From: a virus
Length of the DNA stretch: 41,006 nt
IMG/VR virus record: IMGVR_UViG_3300042090_001871
Location: 1 to 41,006 of that record
Reading direction: 5' to 3' (one strand)
Shown here piece after piece: positions 4,716-36,029 of the stretch; positions within the stretch are counted from its first letter, which is position 1, and every line of letters starts with the position of its first letter. The translations under genes and the position numbers were made by a program. The notes beneath the pieces are model-generated. The model had not been told where the DNA came from, ran no database searches, and worked only from the letters and a program-made list of their open reading frames with translations.

Positions 4716-5774
4716 ATGGTTCAAATTTTACCTGAATCTCCTTCTTTTGGAAGCCAACTTGGAAGAAACTTAGGAACTGGTTTGTCTCAAGGGATAAGCA
4801 GTGGAGTCGACTTTGCCAGTAAATTGGGTGTAGAGAAAGAGAAAAGTAAACTCATTATAAACGCTTTAATCGAAAAAGGTGTTTCTCCTGAAGATGCACA
4901 ACTTTATTCTCGTCTGACTAAAGGCGGACAAACGGCCTTTGTTAAGGATGTGCTTGAATCAGAGAAAAGGAAAAAAGATCTTTCTCCCTTCAATCCATTA
5001 AAGCGGCAAAAAGATCTTTTGGGTTCGGAACAGAAAACTGAAACAGAAGAACAACTTTCTCCTGAGGAGATGGTAGACAGAGAAATAGAACAAGAAAATT
5101 ATATTCAGGATCTAGGCCTAACTCCTGCTGAAAGAGTAAAAAGAGAAAAAGAACGTTTTGATACCGGATATAAGAAATACGAAGAATCAGGAGCAAAACT
5201 CCGGGGAATGACTAGGGACAAGGAAAGACTCGATATACTTGAGAAGCTTAACTCTAGTGACAAACTTCCTCAAAACATGGGACGGCTTAATGTTGATAAA
5301 GAAGGAAACTTAAGATTTCCCTTTGCGTCTACGCCTGAAGCCGAAAGATTTATTAAAACACTTAATGAATTTTCGGCTGGAGCCAAAGACACCTATGGTT
5401 CCCGTGTTACTAATTTCGATTTGCAGCAATACATGAGAAGGTATCCTACGCTTGTGAATTCAAAAGAAGGAAGACGTCAAATTCTTCAGCAAATGAAAAT
5501 CGTCAACCAGATCAACTCCACATATTATAAGAACCTTAAAGATGCTTATGATAAAGCTGGCGGCGTACGAAAGATTGATGCTGATAGAGCTGATATGCTT
5601 GCAGAGAAAAAATCGGAACCTAAAATTCAAGAATTAGTCAAAAAATTCGACCAAATAGGTCAGTTTCCAACTCTCCCGAATGCCGCCGAATTTAAAGGAT
5701 CAAAGATTCGAAATAAAGAGACTGGAGAAATCATGGTAAGTGATGGAAAAAACTGGATCCCTGAGGAAAAATAA
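4716..5774 (+). CDS. Ejection-type virion protein, helical
   Basis: A 352-aa, strongly charged, largely alpha-helical protein, rich in Lys, Glu and Gln. It starts MVQILPESPSFGSQLGRNLGTGLSQGISSGVDF, a small-residue N-terminus frequent in podoviral internal proteins, followed by long helices (about 60-260). Its stop overlaps the ATG of the next gene (TAATG). Its location between two other ejection-type genes suggests an internal virion protein released with DNA (compare P22 gp20 by position). I recognise no enzymatic motif. Confidence 0.55.
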   Translation: MVQILPESPSFGSQLGRNLGTGLSQGISSGVDFASKLGVEKEKSKLIINALIEKGVSPEDAQLYSRLTKGGQTAFVKDVLESEKRKKDLSPFNPLKRQKDLLGSEQKTETEEQLSPEEMVDREIEQENYIQDLGLTPAERVKREKERFDTGYKKYEESGAKLRGMTRDKERLDILEKLNSSDKLPQNMGRLNVDKEGNLRFPFASTPEAERFIKTLNEFSAGAKDTYGSRVTNFDLQQYMRRYPTLVNSKEGRRQILQQMKIVNQINSTYYKNLKDAYDKAGGVRKIDADRADMLAEKKSEPKIQELVKKFDQIGQFPTLPNAAEFKGSKIRNKETGEIMVSDGKNWIPEEK

Positions 5775-10014: not shown

Positions 10015-10068
10015 TTATGTCTTCTCAATAGCATTATAACAATATTCGTTCAATAAATCTTTAGCCAT
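10015..10068 (-). CDS. Possible 17-codon peptide overlapping the portal stop
   Basis: A short frame (MAKDLLNEYCYNAIEKT) whose ATG overlaps the last codons of the portal gene. It fills most of the gap to the next gene. The overlap resembles other coupled starts here, but the length gives little statistical support. Confidence 0.2.
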   Translation of the reverse strand: MAKDLLNEYCYNAIEKT

Positions 10069-12069
10069 TTTGTTGTGGCCCTAGACCATTCATCATTTTA
10101 GTGACGAATTCATCGGACGCGGCATCGCTATGAGATTGTTGTTTTTCTCGATCTTCCATCACGGCAGATTGATAATCAAATGATTGAATTTCATTCATCT
10201 TAAGAGCTGTTTCAATCTCTCCATACTTACCGATAACATCGACCATCTTCTCCAAGGCTTCCATCTTAGCTTTGGTAGAAAGTGCACGATTTTTTGAGAC
10301 TTCGGCCATGCGTTCTTCCAATAAACCAATATTACTTTCGAATCGACCATAGCGTTCTTTAGCCATCGCAATTTGATTAGCTGTTTTAGCATAGAGTTCT
10401 TTCAACTTGCCTTCCTCAACTGCATGCTGAAGATTGGTGGTGTGTTCTTGAGCAGCCGCCATCTGACCTTCTTGTTGCTTGAGGAAGTTGATGATTTCAG
10501 CCTTACCAGTGATGTTGAGTTTGGGTATGATCATCGAAGCAGGGAAGATTTCCCGTCCAAAAACTTGGTTCATATCGAGCATTTGCTGAGCTTGGAGGTT
10601 ACTTTGTGTAGGTGTTAGGTCGCTTTCTTCTACTAATACATTATATTTGGCGAATACCTTTGAGTAGAAAAACGGACTCGGTTCTTCACCGATGATTTGT
10701 CCTACCTTTTCAGCGCTCCAGTTATTTAGAACAATCTGAAGGAGTCTATCTCCGAGTGTCTTTAATGATAGATCCCACTGATCGAAGTATTTCTGGAACA
10801 CCATCAGGTTGGCAGCTTGTTTCAGGAGTACAGTCAAGCTAGAAGTCTGCTTGTCTTGCTGGCCTGACCAGTTCTCTAGATTGATACCCGATGTTTTGTA
10901 CATCAGGTCTTCCATCTGTTGAGCTAAGGCTAGATCAGATTCGGGGACAGCAGACGGAATGATCTTTTCGCAATCAGCCATTTCAAAGCCATCATTAATA
11001 ATAACGTCCCAACCTTGGCCAGATTTCTTTAGGTTGTCTTCATTTGCTACTGCCCCGACTTTGCGTTTCCATCCAGCATTGATTGTTGCGGCTGCGATGT
11101 CATTGTTCTGAATCACTTTATGATTGAAAAGGAATTGTGGTGAACGCATAGTTCTAATAAGACCGCGCACCCTAAGGTCGTAGTAGTTGATATGCGGCTC
11201 GTAGTTCCATACAACAGGAATGAACGGACAACCATCAAAACCTAGGGGATTCTCTCCCAAGAACATCATTTGATCGTTTAATACAACAGCCAGCTTCCAT
11301 GTGGGGACTTCAACAGTGACTTCTTCCAGATCGGGTATGTTTTGAACCAGCATGTCCATATTTCCATCGCCACCGGCAAAGTCAAAGAACTGATTTCTTG
11401 TTTTGGAATAGAGTCTTTTCTTCTTTCGTTTCCATTTATACCAAACATAGCTGACGACCATAAGATCGTTACGAGCCATGTTGTAGTTTTCAGGAAGGAA
11501 GTAGAAGTTTCCGTACCGTTGAGGAGTTCCAGACATTGGAAGAATCGATTCAATTTTATCTGGGAATCTAGCTTCAGCCTCGCTTTTAGATATGTATTCC
11601 TGACACCATATAAACTGAGCATCTTCGAACGTCATGGAGCGGGCGTATGGATCACAGAGGAAACTATTATATTCCCAAAGTTTGAGCTTTAACTCGCCCT
11701 GAGCCTGATCTCCATTGGTATAGTCGAGATAGGGTTGTAATAGACACATTCCAGTAATGGCGGCTTGCTCGCACGCGCGCGAGAACTGCTCATGGATCTG
11801 GTGTCTATTAGCTTCCAAAGTAATAAGCTTTGTATATTGATCTGTGGTCTGTGGATCTGATCCCTCAGAGGCCGTAAAGTTGAAGTTCTTACGGTGTTGC
11901 CGTTGATATCCAGTCAGCATGTTTACTGGCTGTTGGCAGATATTGAAGTAGTAGTTAGAGTTAGTGGTATTGGTACCGGTATTAAAATATCGGTTTAAGA
12001 ACGATTGCTCGCCCGCATAAAAGAGGGTCAAAGTTGTTACGCACCTTCCGGCGGGATTGGTCATTTCTG
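10061..12069 (-). CDS. Portal protein, downstream exon
   Basis: This exon encodes nearly all of the portal, the dodecameric ring through which DNA enters the head. The ORF as read opens at 12088, but the first bases of that ORF fall in the predicted intron hairpin P9. The predicted 3' splice site is after 12070. Hallmarks are LFYAGEQSFLNRYF, NICQQPVNMLTGYQRQHRKNF and a long body with ITGMCLLQPYLDY, followed by a C-terminal coiled region and a Gln-rich end. Without the upstream exon the usual N-terminal helix before the YAGEQ motif is missing. Joined to 13216-13300 it gives 697 aa in frame. The gene is downstream of the large terminase, as usual. Confidence 0.85.
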
Positions 12070-13215
12070 CCAACCTCTGCAATTTCATTCTATAGTTGCA
12101 GATCGGACTATCACATACTCTTTCGAGTCTCTAGGGTTTAGTCTCTCAGGCTGTATTTAAACTTGCCCCTTGTTACCCCGTCGGGCTTCCAAGTCAATTA
12201 CCTAAAGTTTATCATCGACTCACTTTTAATCGATGTTAGACTGATTCCAGCGCGTTTACAGTCTAATAACAGGCCCGCTTAAGCCTGCTCAATGGGCATA
12301 AATTTCGAAAAAAGATTATTAAGCCACTGTCTTACGTTGCCTTGATTCGGCTCTATGTCCGAATTCCATGGCGGGTAGTAAAATGTCAAGTTGCCCTCCC
12401 TTAATAAGGTTGATAATTAAAATTTCACCTTACATTAAAGGGGTTATAGGGTCAAGTAGGGGCGATATTAATAGAAAAGAGGTCTAATTGTCTTGCATGG
12501 ATCTTTAAAAGATCACTAACTTGCTTTCGCGTCATATTAAGCGTTTCTGCAATATCTTGATAGGCATATCCTTTTTTTCTCAAATCAACAGCAACAGGTG
12601 CAAGATTATTTCTGATATTGATTAAGCAATCTTGACCGCAGCGTGTCTGTTTCGAATATTTATTTACAAAGAATTTTTTTGAACATATTTTACAAGTTCT
12701 TTCTTCGTTATCTATACCACTAGCTCGTCTTGCAGCAGCTTTACACTTATTGGAGCAAAAGGCTTGGTGGTATACTTTTGTGCGAGCTTTTTTTCCGCAT
12801 TGGGAGCAAGTTATTTCGAACTCTTCTCTTTTTTCCCATCCTAAGATTCCATGTTTTTTATGCCATTCTCTGCCTTCTTTACTTCGATGCCAATCTTTAG
12901 TAAGAGCACGAATTCTTTCAGCATGTTTTCTTTGGGCTTCCAATCTGATTGGATCGCTCATTAATTCATTTGCATGTAAACTTAAATGAATCCGTCCTTC
13001 AAGGATCTCTAAATTTTCTGGAGAGTTATTTGATTTATTGCCATCTTTGTGATGAACATGATAACCCGCTGGAACCGCACCTTTTATATTGCACCACACC
13101 CATTTATGAGCACGAATACGTGGATAGTCAGTAGAAATCCAATAGCCTGTTTTTTTATCTTGGTAAAACTTTCTTCCATAGTGAATTTGATGTTCAATCA
13201 TAGGATAGCATGTTA
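12070..13215 (-). ncRNA. Group I self-splicing intron in the portal gene
   Basis: About 1146 bases, read on the minus strand. P1: exon end GATGTTT (13222-13216) pairs with GAACATC (13195-13189), with a U-G pair at the splice site. P3: CTTTAGG (12207-12201) with CCTAGAG (12135-12129). P4: ACTTG with CAAGT. P7: GACTA (12143-12139) with TAGTC (12110-12106), in the classic R and S sequence contexts. P8: ACTC-GAAA-GAGT (12128-12117). P9: TCTGCAA (12102-12096) with TTGCAGA (12082-12076), then GGTTGG ending in the terminal G at 12070. Splicing there restores the portal frame. An HNH ORF fills the 5' part; the 380 bases 12070-12451 hold the RNA core with further hairpins. No convincing P10 was found. 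Confidence 0.8.
12452..13201 (-). CDS. Intron-encoded HNH homing endonuclease
   Basis: 249 aa from ATG 13201; the frame is open back to 13300 through portal exon 1. Residues about 20-75 carry the HNH domain: RAHKWVWCNIKGAVPAGY, then HVHHKDGNKSNNSPENLE. Two zinc-binding pairs follow (CSQC/CSNKC and CKIC/CGQDC), then a C-terminal helix-turn-helix (YQDIAETLNMTRKQVSDLL). This is the usual make-up of phage intron endonucleases that cut an intronless allele and spread the intron. The start codon lies in the P1 loop and the coding region runs through the guide sequence. No good ribosome-binding site precedes it, so a fusion read from unspliced portal mRNA is possible. Confidence 0.85.
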   Translation of the reverse strand: MIEHQIHYGRKFYQDKKTGYWISTDYPRIRAHKWVWCNIKGAVPAGYHVHHKDGNKSNNSPENLEILEGRIHLSLHANELMSDPIRLEAQRKHAERIRALTKDWHRSKEGREWHKKHGILGWEKREEFEITCSQCGKKARTKVYHQAFCSNKCKAAARRASGIDNEERTCKICSKKFFVNKYSKQTRCGQDCLINIRNNLAPVAVDLRKKGYAYQDIAETLNMTRKQVSDLLKIHARQLDLFSINIAPT

Positions 13216-13300
13216 AAACATCGATGAATTTTTCGTGAAGGGAAAAAGTTAGTTTAGAAGTTGCTTGAAAATCTACTGTTGATATATTTATTCGGATCAT
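13216..13300 (-). CDS. Portal protein, upstream exon (predicted)
   Basis: 28 codons plus one base. The exon begins with ATG at 13300, overlapping the last 47 bases of the large terminase gene. It encodes a helix-like N-terminus (SKLTFSLHEKFIDV). The junction T|CA gives Ser and continues EMTNPAGRC...LFYAGEQ, supplying the N-terminal segment expected before the portal core. No clear ribosome-binding site precedes the ATG, so coupling to terminase translation is likely. The exon rests on the P1 and P9 splice-site predictions and on frame agreement. Confidence 0.65.
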
Positions 13301-35060: not shown

Positions 35061-36029
35061 ATGTCTATTACGACAACTGGTAATTTAGGCCCGTTGATTC
35101 TCCAGAGCTTAGCTCCTGCGATGCTTTACGTGCCTACTCCTACCATGAACTATATTACAATTTGCGACAAAGTCAGCATGCCATCTAACGGTGGTACAAC
35201 TTGCCGCTTTATGCGCCCACGCGCACTACAACCGCCTACCATTCAACTTGGTAACAGCGGTATTGATCCTCCAGCACAAGTCCCACAACGGGACATCATC
35301 GACGCTCAAATGGCGTTCTTTGGTACTGGTTGCATCATTAACGAACAAGTAATTCTTCAAGACCAAGAAGGCGTTCTCGCTTGGGTATCTGAGCGTCTCG
35401 CCGTTGCTATGCGTCAAGCTGAAGACTTAATCCTCCGTGACTACATTATATCGGCAGCGTCTGATATCAATGCTGGCGGCGGATCTAACGGAGACAACCC
35501 AACTAACCTTGGACTCTCTGATTTCAGCTTAGTTGCTACAACTCTTGATACCAACAACGCCTACAAATTTATGTCGGGTATTGAGGGGATGGATAGATTT
35601 GGTACTGGCCCTATTCGTTCTTCTTATTTCATGTTGAGCTCTACCGAGCTTCAATCTGACTTTGATGGACTCGTAGGATCTGGTGTACTCAACAATTGGA
35701 ACTATCCGACAAATGCGTCGGCTCTTCCTTCAGAATGGGGATCGGTGTTCAACCTCCGTATTCTTACATCTTCTGAAGCTCCAGTTGCTAGAGGCGCTTC
35801 TGCTAACGGAAACGATGTTTATTACAACACTGTTACCGGTAAACAAGGCGTTACCCACATCAACCAAGACGGATATTCGATGAACCTTATTTATCGCGAT
35901 CCTTATTATTCTGGCATGCTTGCTCAGAACGCGACACTCGCTGTCAAGTTCGCACAAGCACAAGCCCTAACTCAAGATACGGCTGTCCGCAATTTACTTT
36001 GCACACGCCTATCTAACCTGGGGGTGTAA
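35061..36029 (+). CDS. Major capsid protein (N4-gp56-like)
   Basis: A 322-aa protein forming the head shell. The N-terminal region PTPTMNYITICDKVSMPSNGG, then TCRFMRPRAL, the central WVSERLAVAMRQAEDLILRDYI, and the C-terminal YYNTVTGKQGVTHINQDGYSM and YYSGMLAQNATLAVKFA match the N4 gp56 family of coat proteins. It shows an HK97-type composition. AGG lies six bases upstream. It has a dedicated promoter and a long structured leader. The scaffold is on the opposite strand, 26 kb away by window coordinates (about 14 kb around the circle). Confidence 0.85.
   Translation: MSITTTGNLGPLILQSLAPAMLYVPTPTMNYITICDKVSMPSNGGTTCRFMRPRALQPPTIQLGNSGIDPPAQVPQRDIIDAQMAFFGTGCIINEQVILQDQEGVLAWVSERLAVAMRQAEDLILRDYIISAASDINAGGGSNGDNPTNLGLSDFSLVATTLDTNNAYKFMSGIEGMDRFGTGPIRSSYFMLSSTELQSDFDGLVGSGVLNNWNYPTNASALPSEWGSVFNLRILTSSEAPVARGASANGNDVYYNTVTGKQGVTHINQDGYSMNLIYRDPYYSGMLAQNATLAVKFAQAQALTQDTAVRNLLCTRLSNLGV

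What the first reader, a model, noticed from the sequence alone, without database searches (positions are those of the whole stretch)
12070..13300. Portal gene split by a group I intron, with frame-restoring splice
A portal ORF that opens abnormally late is preceded by a recognisable group I core (P3, P4, P7, P8 with GAAA loop, P9) and by an ORF whose first 28 codons plus one base, joined to 12069, give one 697-codon frame. The 5' site comes from P1 with a U-G pair and the 3' site from P9 and the terminal G, and both agree on phase. Phage introns are known mostly in terminase, polymerase, nucleotide-metabolism and lysis genes; a portal insertion just before the conserved YAGEQ region is unusual.
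Basis: partly seen in the sequence, partly recalled or inferred. Interest (0 to 1): 0.85.

Follow-up and report, generated by a model that had tools for sequence, protein, structure and literature searches.

The report
Coreless mini-intron beside group I intron
A phage portal gene is broken by a normal self-splicing (group I) intron and, just upstream, by a 29-letter "mini-intron" that carries only the splice-site guide sequences and no catalytic core; dozens of related phages show the same pair, so one ribozyme probably cuts out two introns, which I have not found described in nature.

Summary
Intronless homologs show exon 1 = 12389-12282 (after the HNH gene), then a 29-nt insert (12281-12253), a 24-nt microexon RWNQSNID (12252-12229), a 200-nt group I intron (12228-12029) and the rest of the portal (12028-10061); joined, this is one 699-aa frame, 81% identical to an intronless portal from residue 1. 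The 29-nt insert has a P1 (U.G at the 5' site), a P10 and a terminal G, but no core. Such core-less minis (28-59 nt) recur in portal and major-capsid genes of uncultured phages, always 5' of a full intron (60 of 60 assessable capsid cases). P10 covaries with silent exon changes (wobble base 61/61, four pair types). The mini's tail forms a third helix of about 9 bp with the exon directly 5' of the full intron's P1, at fixed spacing (354/396 cells paired; best of 20,000 permutations 300). Best reading: the full intron's core splices the mini first, then itself. Splicing was not observed; the mechanism is inferred from covariation and strict co-occurrence. The literature held describes only engineered equivalents (trans-excision, spliceozymes).

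The parts
12393..12400 (-). Shine-Dalgarno-like GGGAGGGC of the portal gene
   Evidence: sequence; same position as GGAGG in intronless relatives
12282..12389 (-). portal exon 1, TTG start, MTFYYPPWNSDIEPNQGNVRQWLNNLFSKFMPIEQA
   Evidence: homology to 70 intronless portals; spliced protein aligns from residue 1
12253..12281 (-). 29-nt core-less mini-intron TAAGCGGGCCTGTTATTAGACTGTAAACG
   Evidence: absent from intronless homologs; an in-frame TAA directly after exon 1 if retained; P1, P10 and terminal G
12276..12279 (-). P10 guide AGCG of the mini, pairs with exon 2 start CGCT (12252-12249)
12268..12275 (-). internal guide of the mini GGCCTGTT, pairs with exon 1 end AGCAGGCT (12289-12282), U.G at the splice site
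12259..12266 (-). bridge strand in the mini tail TTAGACTG, pairs with CAGTCTAA (12243-12236)
   Evidence: covariation in relatives
12229..12252 (-). microexon 2, CGCTGGAATCAGTCTAACATCGAT = RWNQSNID; holds the P10 segment 12252-12249, bridge strand 12243-12236 and P1 strand of the full intron 12235-12229
12029..12228 (-). full group I intron, 200 nt, no ORF
   Evidence: spliced alignment; core covariation
12213..12219 (-). internal guide of the full intron GTCGATG, P1 with CATCGAT, U.G at the splice site
   Evidence: sequence; MFE hairpin
12201..12207 (-). P3 5' strand CTTTAGG, pairs with CCTAGAG 12135-12129
12139..12143 (-). P7 5' strand GACTA, pairs with TAGTC 12110-12106 (pseudoknot with P3)
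12117..12128 (-). P8 hairpin ACTC-GAAA-GAGT
10061..12028 (-). portal exon 3 (P22-like portal), starts TLFYAGEQ
   Evidence: Pfam P22_portal E 2.6e-54; phrog_156 portal
12452..13300 (-). free-standing HNH endonuclease gene between terminase and portal; the HNH protein proper probably starts at 13202; not inside the intron
   Evidence: HNH_3 E 1.2e-12; relatives at the same place in intronless genomes

Best explanation
The portal transcript carries two introns that share one ribozyme. The downstream 200-nt intron is a complete group I ribozyme. The upstream 29-nt mini-intron has no core but carries, on one continuous strand, three guides: a P10 guide for the start of exon 2, an internal guide for the end of exon 1 (P1 with U.G at the splice site), and after about 3 nt a bridge segment that pairs with exon 2 directly next to the full intron's P1. 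The bridge hangs the mini's P1 at the base of the full intron's P1, and its loop presents the mini's 3' splice site (terminal G, P10 segment). I infer that the full intron's core first takes the mini's P1, cuts after the U and joins exon 1 to exon 2, releasing the mini. Loss of the bridge strand then frees the full intron's own P1 and it splices itself out. Shown: positions, exon identity, group I core, P1, P10 and bridge by covariation, strict co-occurrence and 5' order. Inferred: that removal happens in RNA, that the neighbouring core does it, and the order of the two steps.
For: Intronless homologs lack both inserts and match the joined exons. Full intron: P3/P4/P5/P6/P7/P8 96.1% paired over 26 introns, covariation 0.547 against 0.186 shuffled. 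Minis at four portal sites and at the capsid FYG|TYV site all have a P1 ending in U.G, a P10 guide (full WC/GU in most, one mismatch in a few) and a terminal G. P10: 140 of 152 Watson-Crick, 0 of 20,000 within-site permutations as high; P1 4 of 20,000. A capsid pattern that left both bases free gave 61 unique minis, wobble base and guide base Watson-Crick in 61/61 with four pair types; the four states need about 18 changes on the exon 1 tree, at least several on supported branches. Bridge helix in 78 mini/full pairs, most often 3 nt after the internal guide and 7-8 nt from the full 5' splice site; 354/396 cells against a permutation maximum of 300; 88.5% paired, covariation 0.600 against 0.176, and all slid versions 0.129 or below. 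MFE of the window RNA shows P1 of the mini, bridge and P1 of the full intron side by side. No orphan mini: 57/61 capsid minis have a full core 3' by HMM, two more have a divergent full intron, one an intron broken by an ORF, one contig ends at the site; all 17 non-redundant portal mini loci too.
Against: No RNA evidence; no cultured phage with the pair was found. How the mini's terminal G reaches the core (a P9.0 equivalent) is not identified; only L127 has a GTAAC-like motif. Some full introns of the same family lack a mini (portal L073, L077; 17 of 56 capsid loci without a mini), so co-occurrence could partly reflect co-conversion during homing. P10 of the window's full intron looks weak.
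Confidence: 0.83

Rival explanations
1. The mini is removed in trans by excised full introns (or any group I core in the cell) rather than by the neighbour in cis; the link to the neighbour is only co-inheritance by homing co-conversion.
For: Group I ribozymes can be engineered to excise short segments in trans (PMC6155759). Mini and full intron are close enough for co-conversion.
Against: The bridge helix ties the mini to the exon next to the full intron's P1 at fixed spacing with covariation; the mini is always 5' of the full intron; no mini without one.
Confidence: 0.1
2. Exon skipping: mini + microexon + full intron form one large intron, with the microexon as part of its P2, so the protein lacks RWNQSNID.
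For: The bridge folds the microexon into a P2-like hairpin; in the window, skipping keeps the frame (24 nt).
Against: P10 covaries with the start of the microexon, not with exon 3. The microexons (RWNQSNID, TYVQINEQ..) keep the amino acids of intronless homologs. In the capsid class with 26-nt exon 2, skipping would break the frame unless the mini site phase compensated.
Confidence: 0.03
3. Translational bypassing: the ribosome hops over the mini as in T4 gene 60 or the mitochondrial byp elements.
For: Similar length (28-59 nt), hairpin, stop codon directly after the take-off point in many.
Against: No matched take-off and landing codons (GCT against ACG in the window; GGT against NNG in capsids). 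A P10 that spans the junction, U.G and terminal G are group I splice-site marks with no role in hopping, and the strict need for a full intron 3' is unexplained.
Confidence: 0.03
4. The mini is a decayed remnant of a full intron and the portal gene is inactive.
For: Full introns occur at the same site A in L001 and L173.
Against: Guides covary with silent exon changes over at least 61 distinct inserts; exons remain conserved; the same state recurs in many phages and genes.
Confidence: 0.01

Closest known systems
Group I introns (phage and bacterial)
   Same: U.G at the 5' splice site, internal guide, P10, terminal G, P3-P8 core in the full intron
   Different: The mini has no core at all, is 28-59 nt long, and pairs by a third helix with the exon beside another intron's P1
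Engineered trans-excision-splicing ribozymes and spliceozymes (PMC6155759, PMC4094466, PMC4509937)
   Same: A group I core removes a short internal segment that it is not part of, recognised by P1 and P10 (trans-excision)
   Different: Natural, in cis; the guide lies in the excised piece and not in the ribozyme; a bridge helix replaces designed contacts
Trans-spliced group I introns of mitochondrial cox1 (Isoetes, Trichoplax, Helicosporidium; PMC2813288)
   Same: Group I parts not on one continuous intron
   Different: There one intron is broken in two and reassembles; here the full intron is intact and serves a second intron
Twintrons and twin-ribozyme introns (own knowledge)
   Same: Two splicing units close together, ordered splicing
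   Different: Those are nested or both catalytic; the mini is outside the full intron and non-catalytic

Membership tests
Group I intron (full intron 12228-12029) | P3/P7 pseudoknotted core with P4, P5, P6, P8 | tested here: met
   26-sequence alignment including the window, 96.1% paired, 24 of 29 pairs with two-sided changes
Group I intron (full intron 12228-12029) | P1 with U.G at the 5' splice site and terminal G | tested here: met
   CATCGAT|..GTCGATG and ..CTTTG| with homolog-defined exon borders
Group I intron (full intron 12228-12029) | match to an Rfam covariance model | tested here: not met
   no group I hit for the window or relatives, gathering or E up to 10; the library may lack this subgroup, so core covariation is the better test
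Group I intron (full intron 12228-12029) | self-splicing | not testable with these tools
   needs RNA
Group I intron (29-nt mini 12281-12253) | P1 with U.G, P10, terminal G | tested here: met
Group I intron (29-nt mini 12281-12253) | own catalytic core P3-P8 | tested here: not met
   29 nt; nothing beyond guides and tail. It works like a group I intron but is not one
Translational bypass element | matched take-off and landing codons | tested here: not met
   GCT against ACG in the window; none in capsid minis
Trans-spliced (split) group I intron | one core broken over two transcripts | tested here: not met
   core intact in one piece
Twintron | one intron inserted inside another | tested here: not met
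   a conserved coding microexon separates mini and full intron
Trans-excision-splicing (engineered) | core removes a separate short segment using P1, P10 and terminal G | tested here: inconclusive
   recognition elements present and covarying; the reaction was not observed
   HNH gene lies upstream of exon 1; same gene in intronless relatives

The most novel reading that the evidence does not exclude
A natural one-ribozyme, two-intron system: non-catalytic mini-introns that carry their own guides are removed by the neighbouring group I core in an ordered, bridge-gated two-step splicing, widespread in structural genes of uncultured phages. It would be a natural counterpart of the engineered spliceozyme and an intermediate between self-splicing introns and guide-dependent introns served by a shared catalyst.
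Probability: 0.8. Interest if true: 0.95.

Novelty: categorically new. Interest (0 to 1): 0.92.

Why it matters
Group I introns are understood as self-contained: each carries its own core. Core-less introns that depend on a neighbour's ribozyme would be the smallest introns of this chemistry (28 nt) and a natural case of a ribozyme serving a second intron, which is the kind of step proposed for the origin of the spliceosome (many introns, one catalyst). It is directly testable with one in vitro transcript. It also means that phage capsid and portal genes in metagenomes are systematically mis-annotated: inserts of about 30 nt with a stop codon look like frameshifts or pseudogenes. The guide-bridge design suggests a way to program cis-acting spliceozymes.

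Tried and rejected
Rfam as classifier: no hit at all. Bypass reading of the mini: no matching codons. Counting minis near introns in other genes with P1+P10 alone: 22 upstream hits against 4.8 in shuffles and 8 downstream, too noisy by itself; adding the bridge gave 74 hits (52 unique) in 7.36 Mb against 0 in 2.54 Mb of shuffled sequence, but most loci had been fetched for introns, so this is specificity, not frequency, and 3 of the 7 hits outside the known sites look like chance. A first regular expression for the downstream core failed and was replaced by a profile HMM. First spliced-alignment script timed out. A search for the capsid mini in bacterial genomes gave 9 hits in unrelated taxa that I did not follow. 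Cultured phages with related full introns (Roseobacter phage CRP-118, Desulfovibrio phage 7757) and uncultured ctn9Y15 show no mini.

Full report
What was claimed.

What is there. The window is an IMG/VR virus record. The downstream ORF is a P22-like portal (Pfam E 2.6e-54; phrog_156). Eighty relatives were fetched from viral contigs. Most have an uninterrupted N-terminus M[ST]FYYPPWNNALEPNQGNVRQWLDNLYSKFQPIEQ[SA]RWNQSNID followed by TLFYAG. In the window this N-terminus lies after the HNH gene: exon 1 at 12389-12282 (TTG start, GGAGG upstream), then 29 extra bases, then CGCTGGAATCAGTCTAACATCGAT (RWNQSNID, 12252-12229), then 200 bases with a group I core, then ACCCTC.. (TLFYAG, 12028).

The full intron. 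Twenty-six introns of this family (portal and capsid) were aligned. P3, P4, P5, P6, P7 and P8, with the P3/P7 pseudoknot, are 96.1% paired; 24 of 29 pairs change on both sides; covariation 0.547 against 0.186 in shuffles and 0.12 or below when slid. It is a group I core by structure. Rfam gave no group I hit in any sample. The HNH gene is not in the intron; relatives of it stand at the same place in intronless genomes.

The mini. The 29-nt insert has no room for a core. It has an internal guide GGCCTGTT that pairs with the end of exon 1 (AGCAGGCT) with U.G at the splice site, directly preceded by AGCG that pairs with the first bases of exon 2 (CGCT), and ends in G. A spliced alignment of all portal loci found the same kind of insert (29-55 nt) in 17 non-redundant loci at four different sites, each with guides fitted to its own site. 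In each of these loci a full intron follows in the same gene. Of the other portal loci only L073 and L077 carry a full intron without a mini; 70 are intronless.

Independent replicate. A scan for minis near introns of this family led to a second gene, an N4-gp56-like major capsid protein. Eighty capsid loci fetched by exon 1 similarity were aligned in the same way: 24 carry a 28-53-nt mini at FYG|TYV and all 24 have a full intron 3' of it; of the 56 without a mini, 17 have one. A pattern that fixed only TACGGT, GTGCCGTA and ACNTAYGT returned, from 2.9 million viral contigs, 80 scorable inserts, all in this capsid gene at this site, 61 of them distinct. The third base of the threonine codon and the opposing guide base, both free in the pattern, are Watson-Crick in 61 of 61 (C-G 42, T-A 9, A-T 6, G-C 4). 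The state changes about 18 times on the exon tree, although the tree is poorly resolved. Lengths fall in all three frames. A core HMM finds a full intron downstream in 57; the other four are two divergent introns at GVS|LRQ, one intron broken by an ORF and one contig that ends at the site.

The bridge. Right after the internal guide, the mini's tail pairs with the exon stretch that lies directly 5' of the full intron's P1. In the window this is TTAGACTG with CAGTCTAA, next to CATCGAT|. In 78 mini/full pairs the best helix is mostly 8-13 bp, starts about 3 nt after the guide and ends 7-8 nt before the full intron's 5' splice site; total score 1381 against at most 1058 with tails permuted within class. 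About ten capsid cases have only 5-6 uninterrupted bp, some through a single mismatch. With fixed geometry in the largest class, 354 of 396 cells pair, against a maximum of 300 in 20,000 permutations; on 32 distinct rows 88.5% pair, covariation 0.600 against 0.176, slid versions 0.129 or below. By eye the same geometry also holds in L226 (another capsid gene, 46-nt mini) and in L107 (capsid QDQEG|VLA, 33 nt). The window RNA folds, without guidance, into mini P1, bridge and full-intron P1 in a row.

Mechanism. P1, P10 and terminal G are what a group I core needs of a substrate. The bridge puts this substrate at the base of the full intron's P1, next to the one core available, and always from the 5' side. 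The simplest reading is that the core serves the mini first and itself second; release of the mini removes the bridge strand. That the reaction occurs, that it is in cis, and the order are inferences. What the mini uses in place of P9.0 is unknown.

Comparison. Engineered group I ribozymes excise short segments (trans-excision) or 100-nt introns (spliceozymes) (PMC6155759, read; PMC4094466 and PMC4509937 listed). [quoted passage not shown] Eight searches of the held literature found no natural core-less group I intron; unheld papers and preprints may differ.

Verdict. The finding is real in part and its most interesting component was not noticed. The mini fails the defining test of a group I intron (its own core), so it is not filed as one; it works like one by borrowing.

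Noticed in passing
L027, L030, L048, L064, L072, L075, L086, L103, L110, L122, L126 (portal, between EQ[SA] and WNQ): A different 47-54-nt insert at the same site as the window's mini: a CGG codon, then a near-perfect GC-rich hairpin (about 14-18 bp, arms changing in step), an A-rich linker, and usually a CGN codon before TGG. No P1, P10 or core and no intron nearby; lengths in all frames. Possibly a translational bypass element or another excised insert.
   Followed up: partly
L323 and L357, capsid gene, CTCCGT-TACG-CAAACTGAAGA: Both carry the same frame-breaking 4-nt insertion about 80 nt 5' of a full group I intron at VNG|D; exon sequence GCGGAGT downstream could pair with ACTCCGT before the insertion. 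Perhaps an extreme mini or a shared error.
   Followed up: partly
window 12452-13300 (-): HNH endonuclease gene between terminase and portal, overlapping the terminase 3' end; relatives stand at the same place in intronless and intron-bearing genomes, so a free-standing homing gene beside an intron hotspot is likely.
   Followed up: partly
L039:3374-4045: One portal gene with four interruptions in about 670 bases: mini, full, mini, full.
   Followed up: yes
L293 (minus strand, about 5160-5345): An HK97-like capsid gene with one mini (37 nt, NIV|YAK) and a probable second one (ESP|DGFAGKY) 5' of a single full intron; no clear bridge found for the first.
   Followed up: partly
L489 (ctn9Y15, P22-like coat gene): A full intron of the same family with an extra P2-like hairpin between P1 and P3, similar in place to the bridge helix of mini/full pairs.
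   Followed up: no
L042:2818-2880: int-alpA RNA (RF02996, 45.8 bits) in a phage contig that also carries the mini/full pair.
   Followed up: no
window 35061-35504 (+): The window's own capsid gene (47% identical to the L206 type) is on the opposite strand to portal and terminase and has no intron at the mini site.
   Followed up: partly
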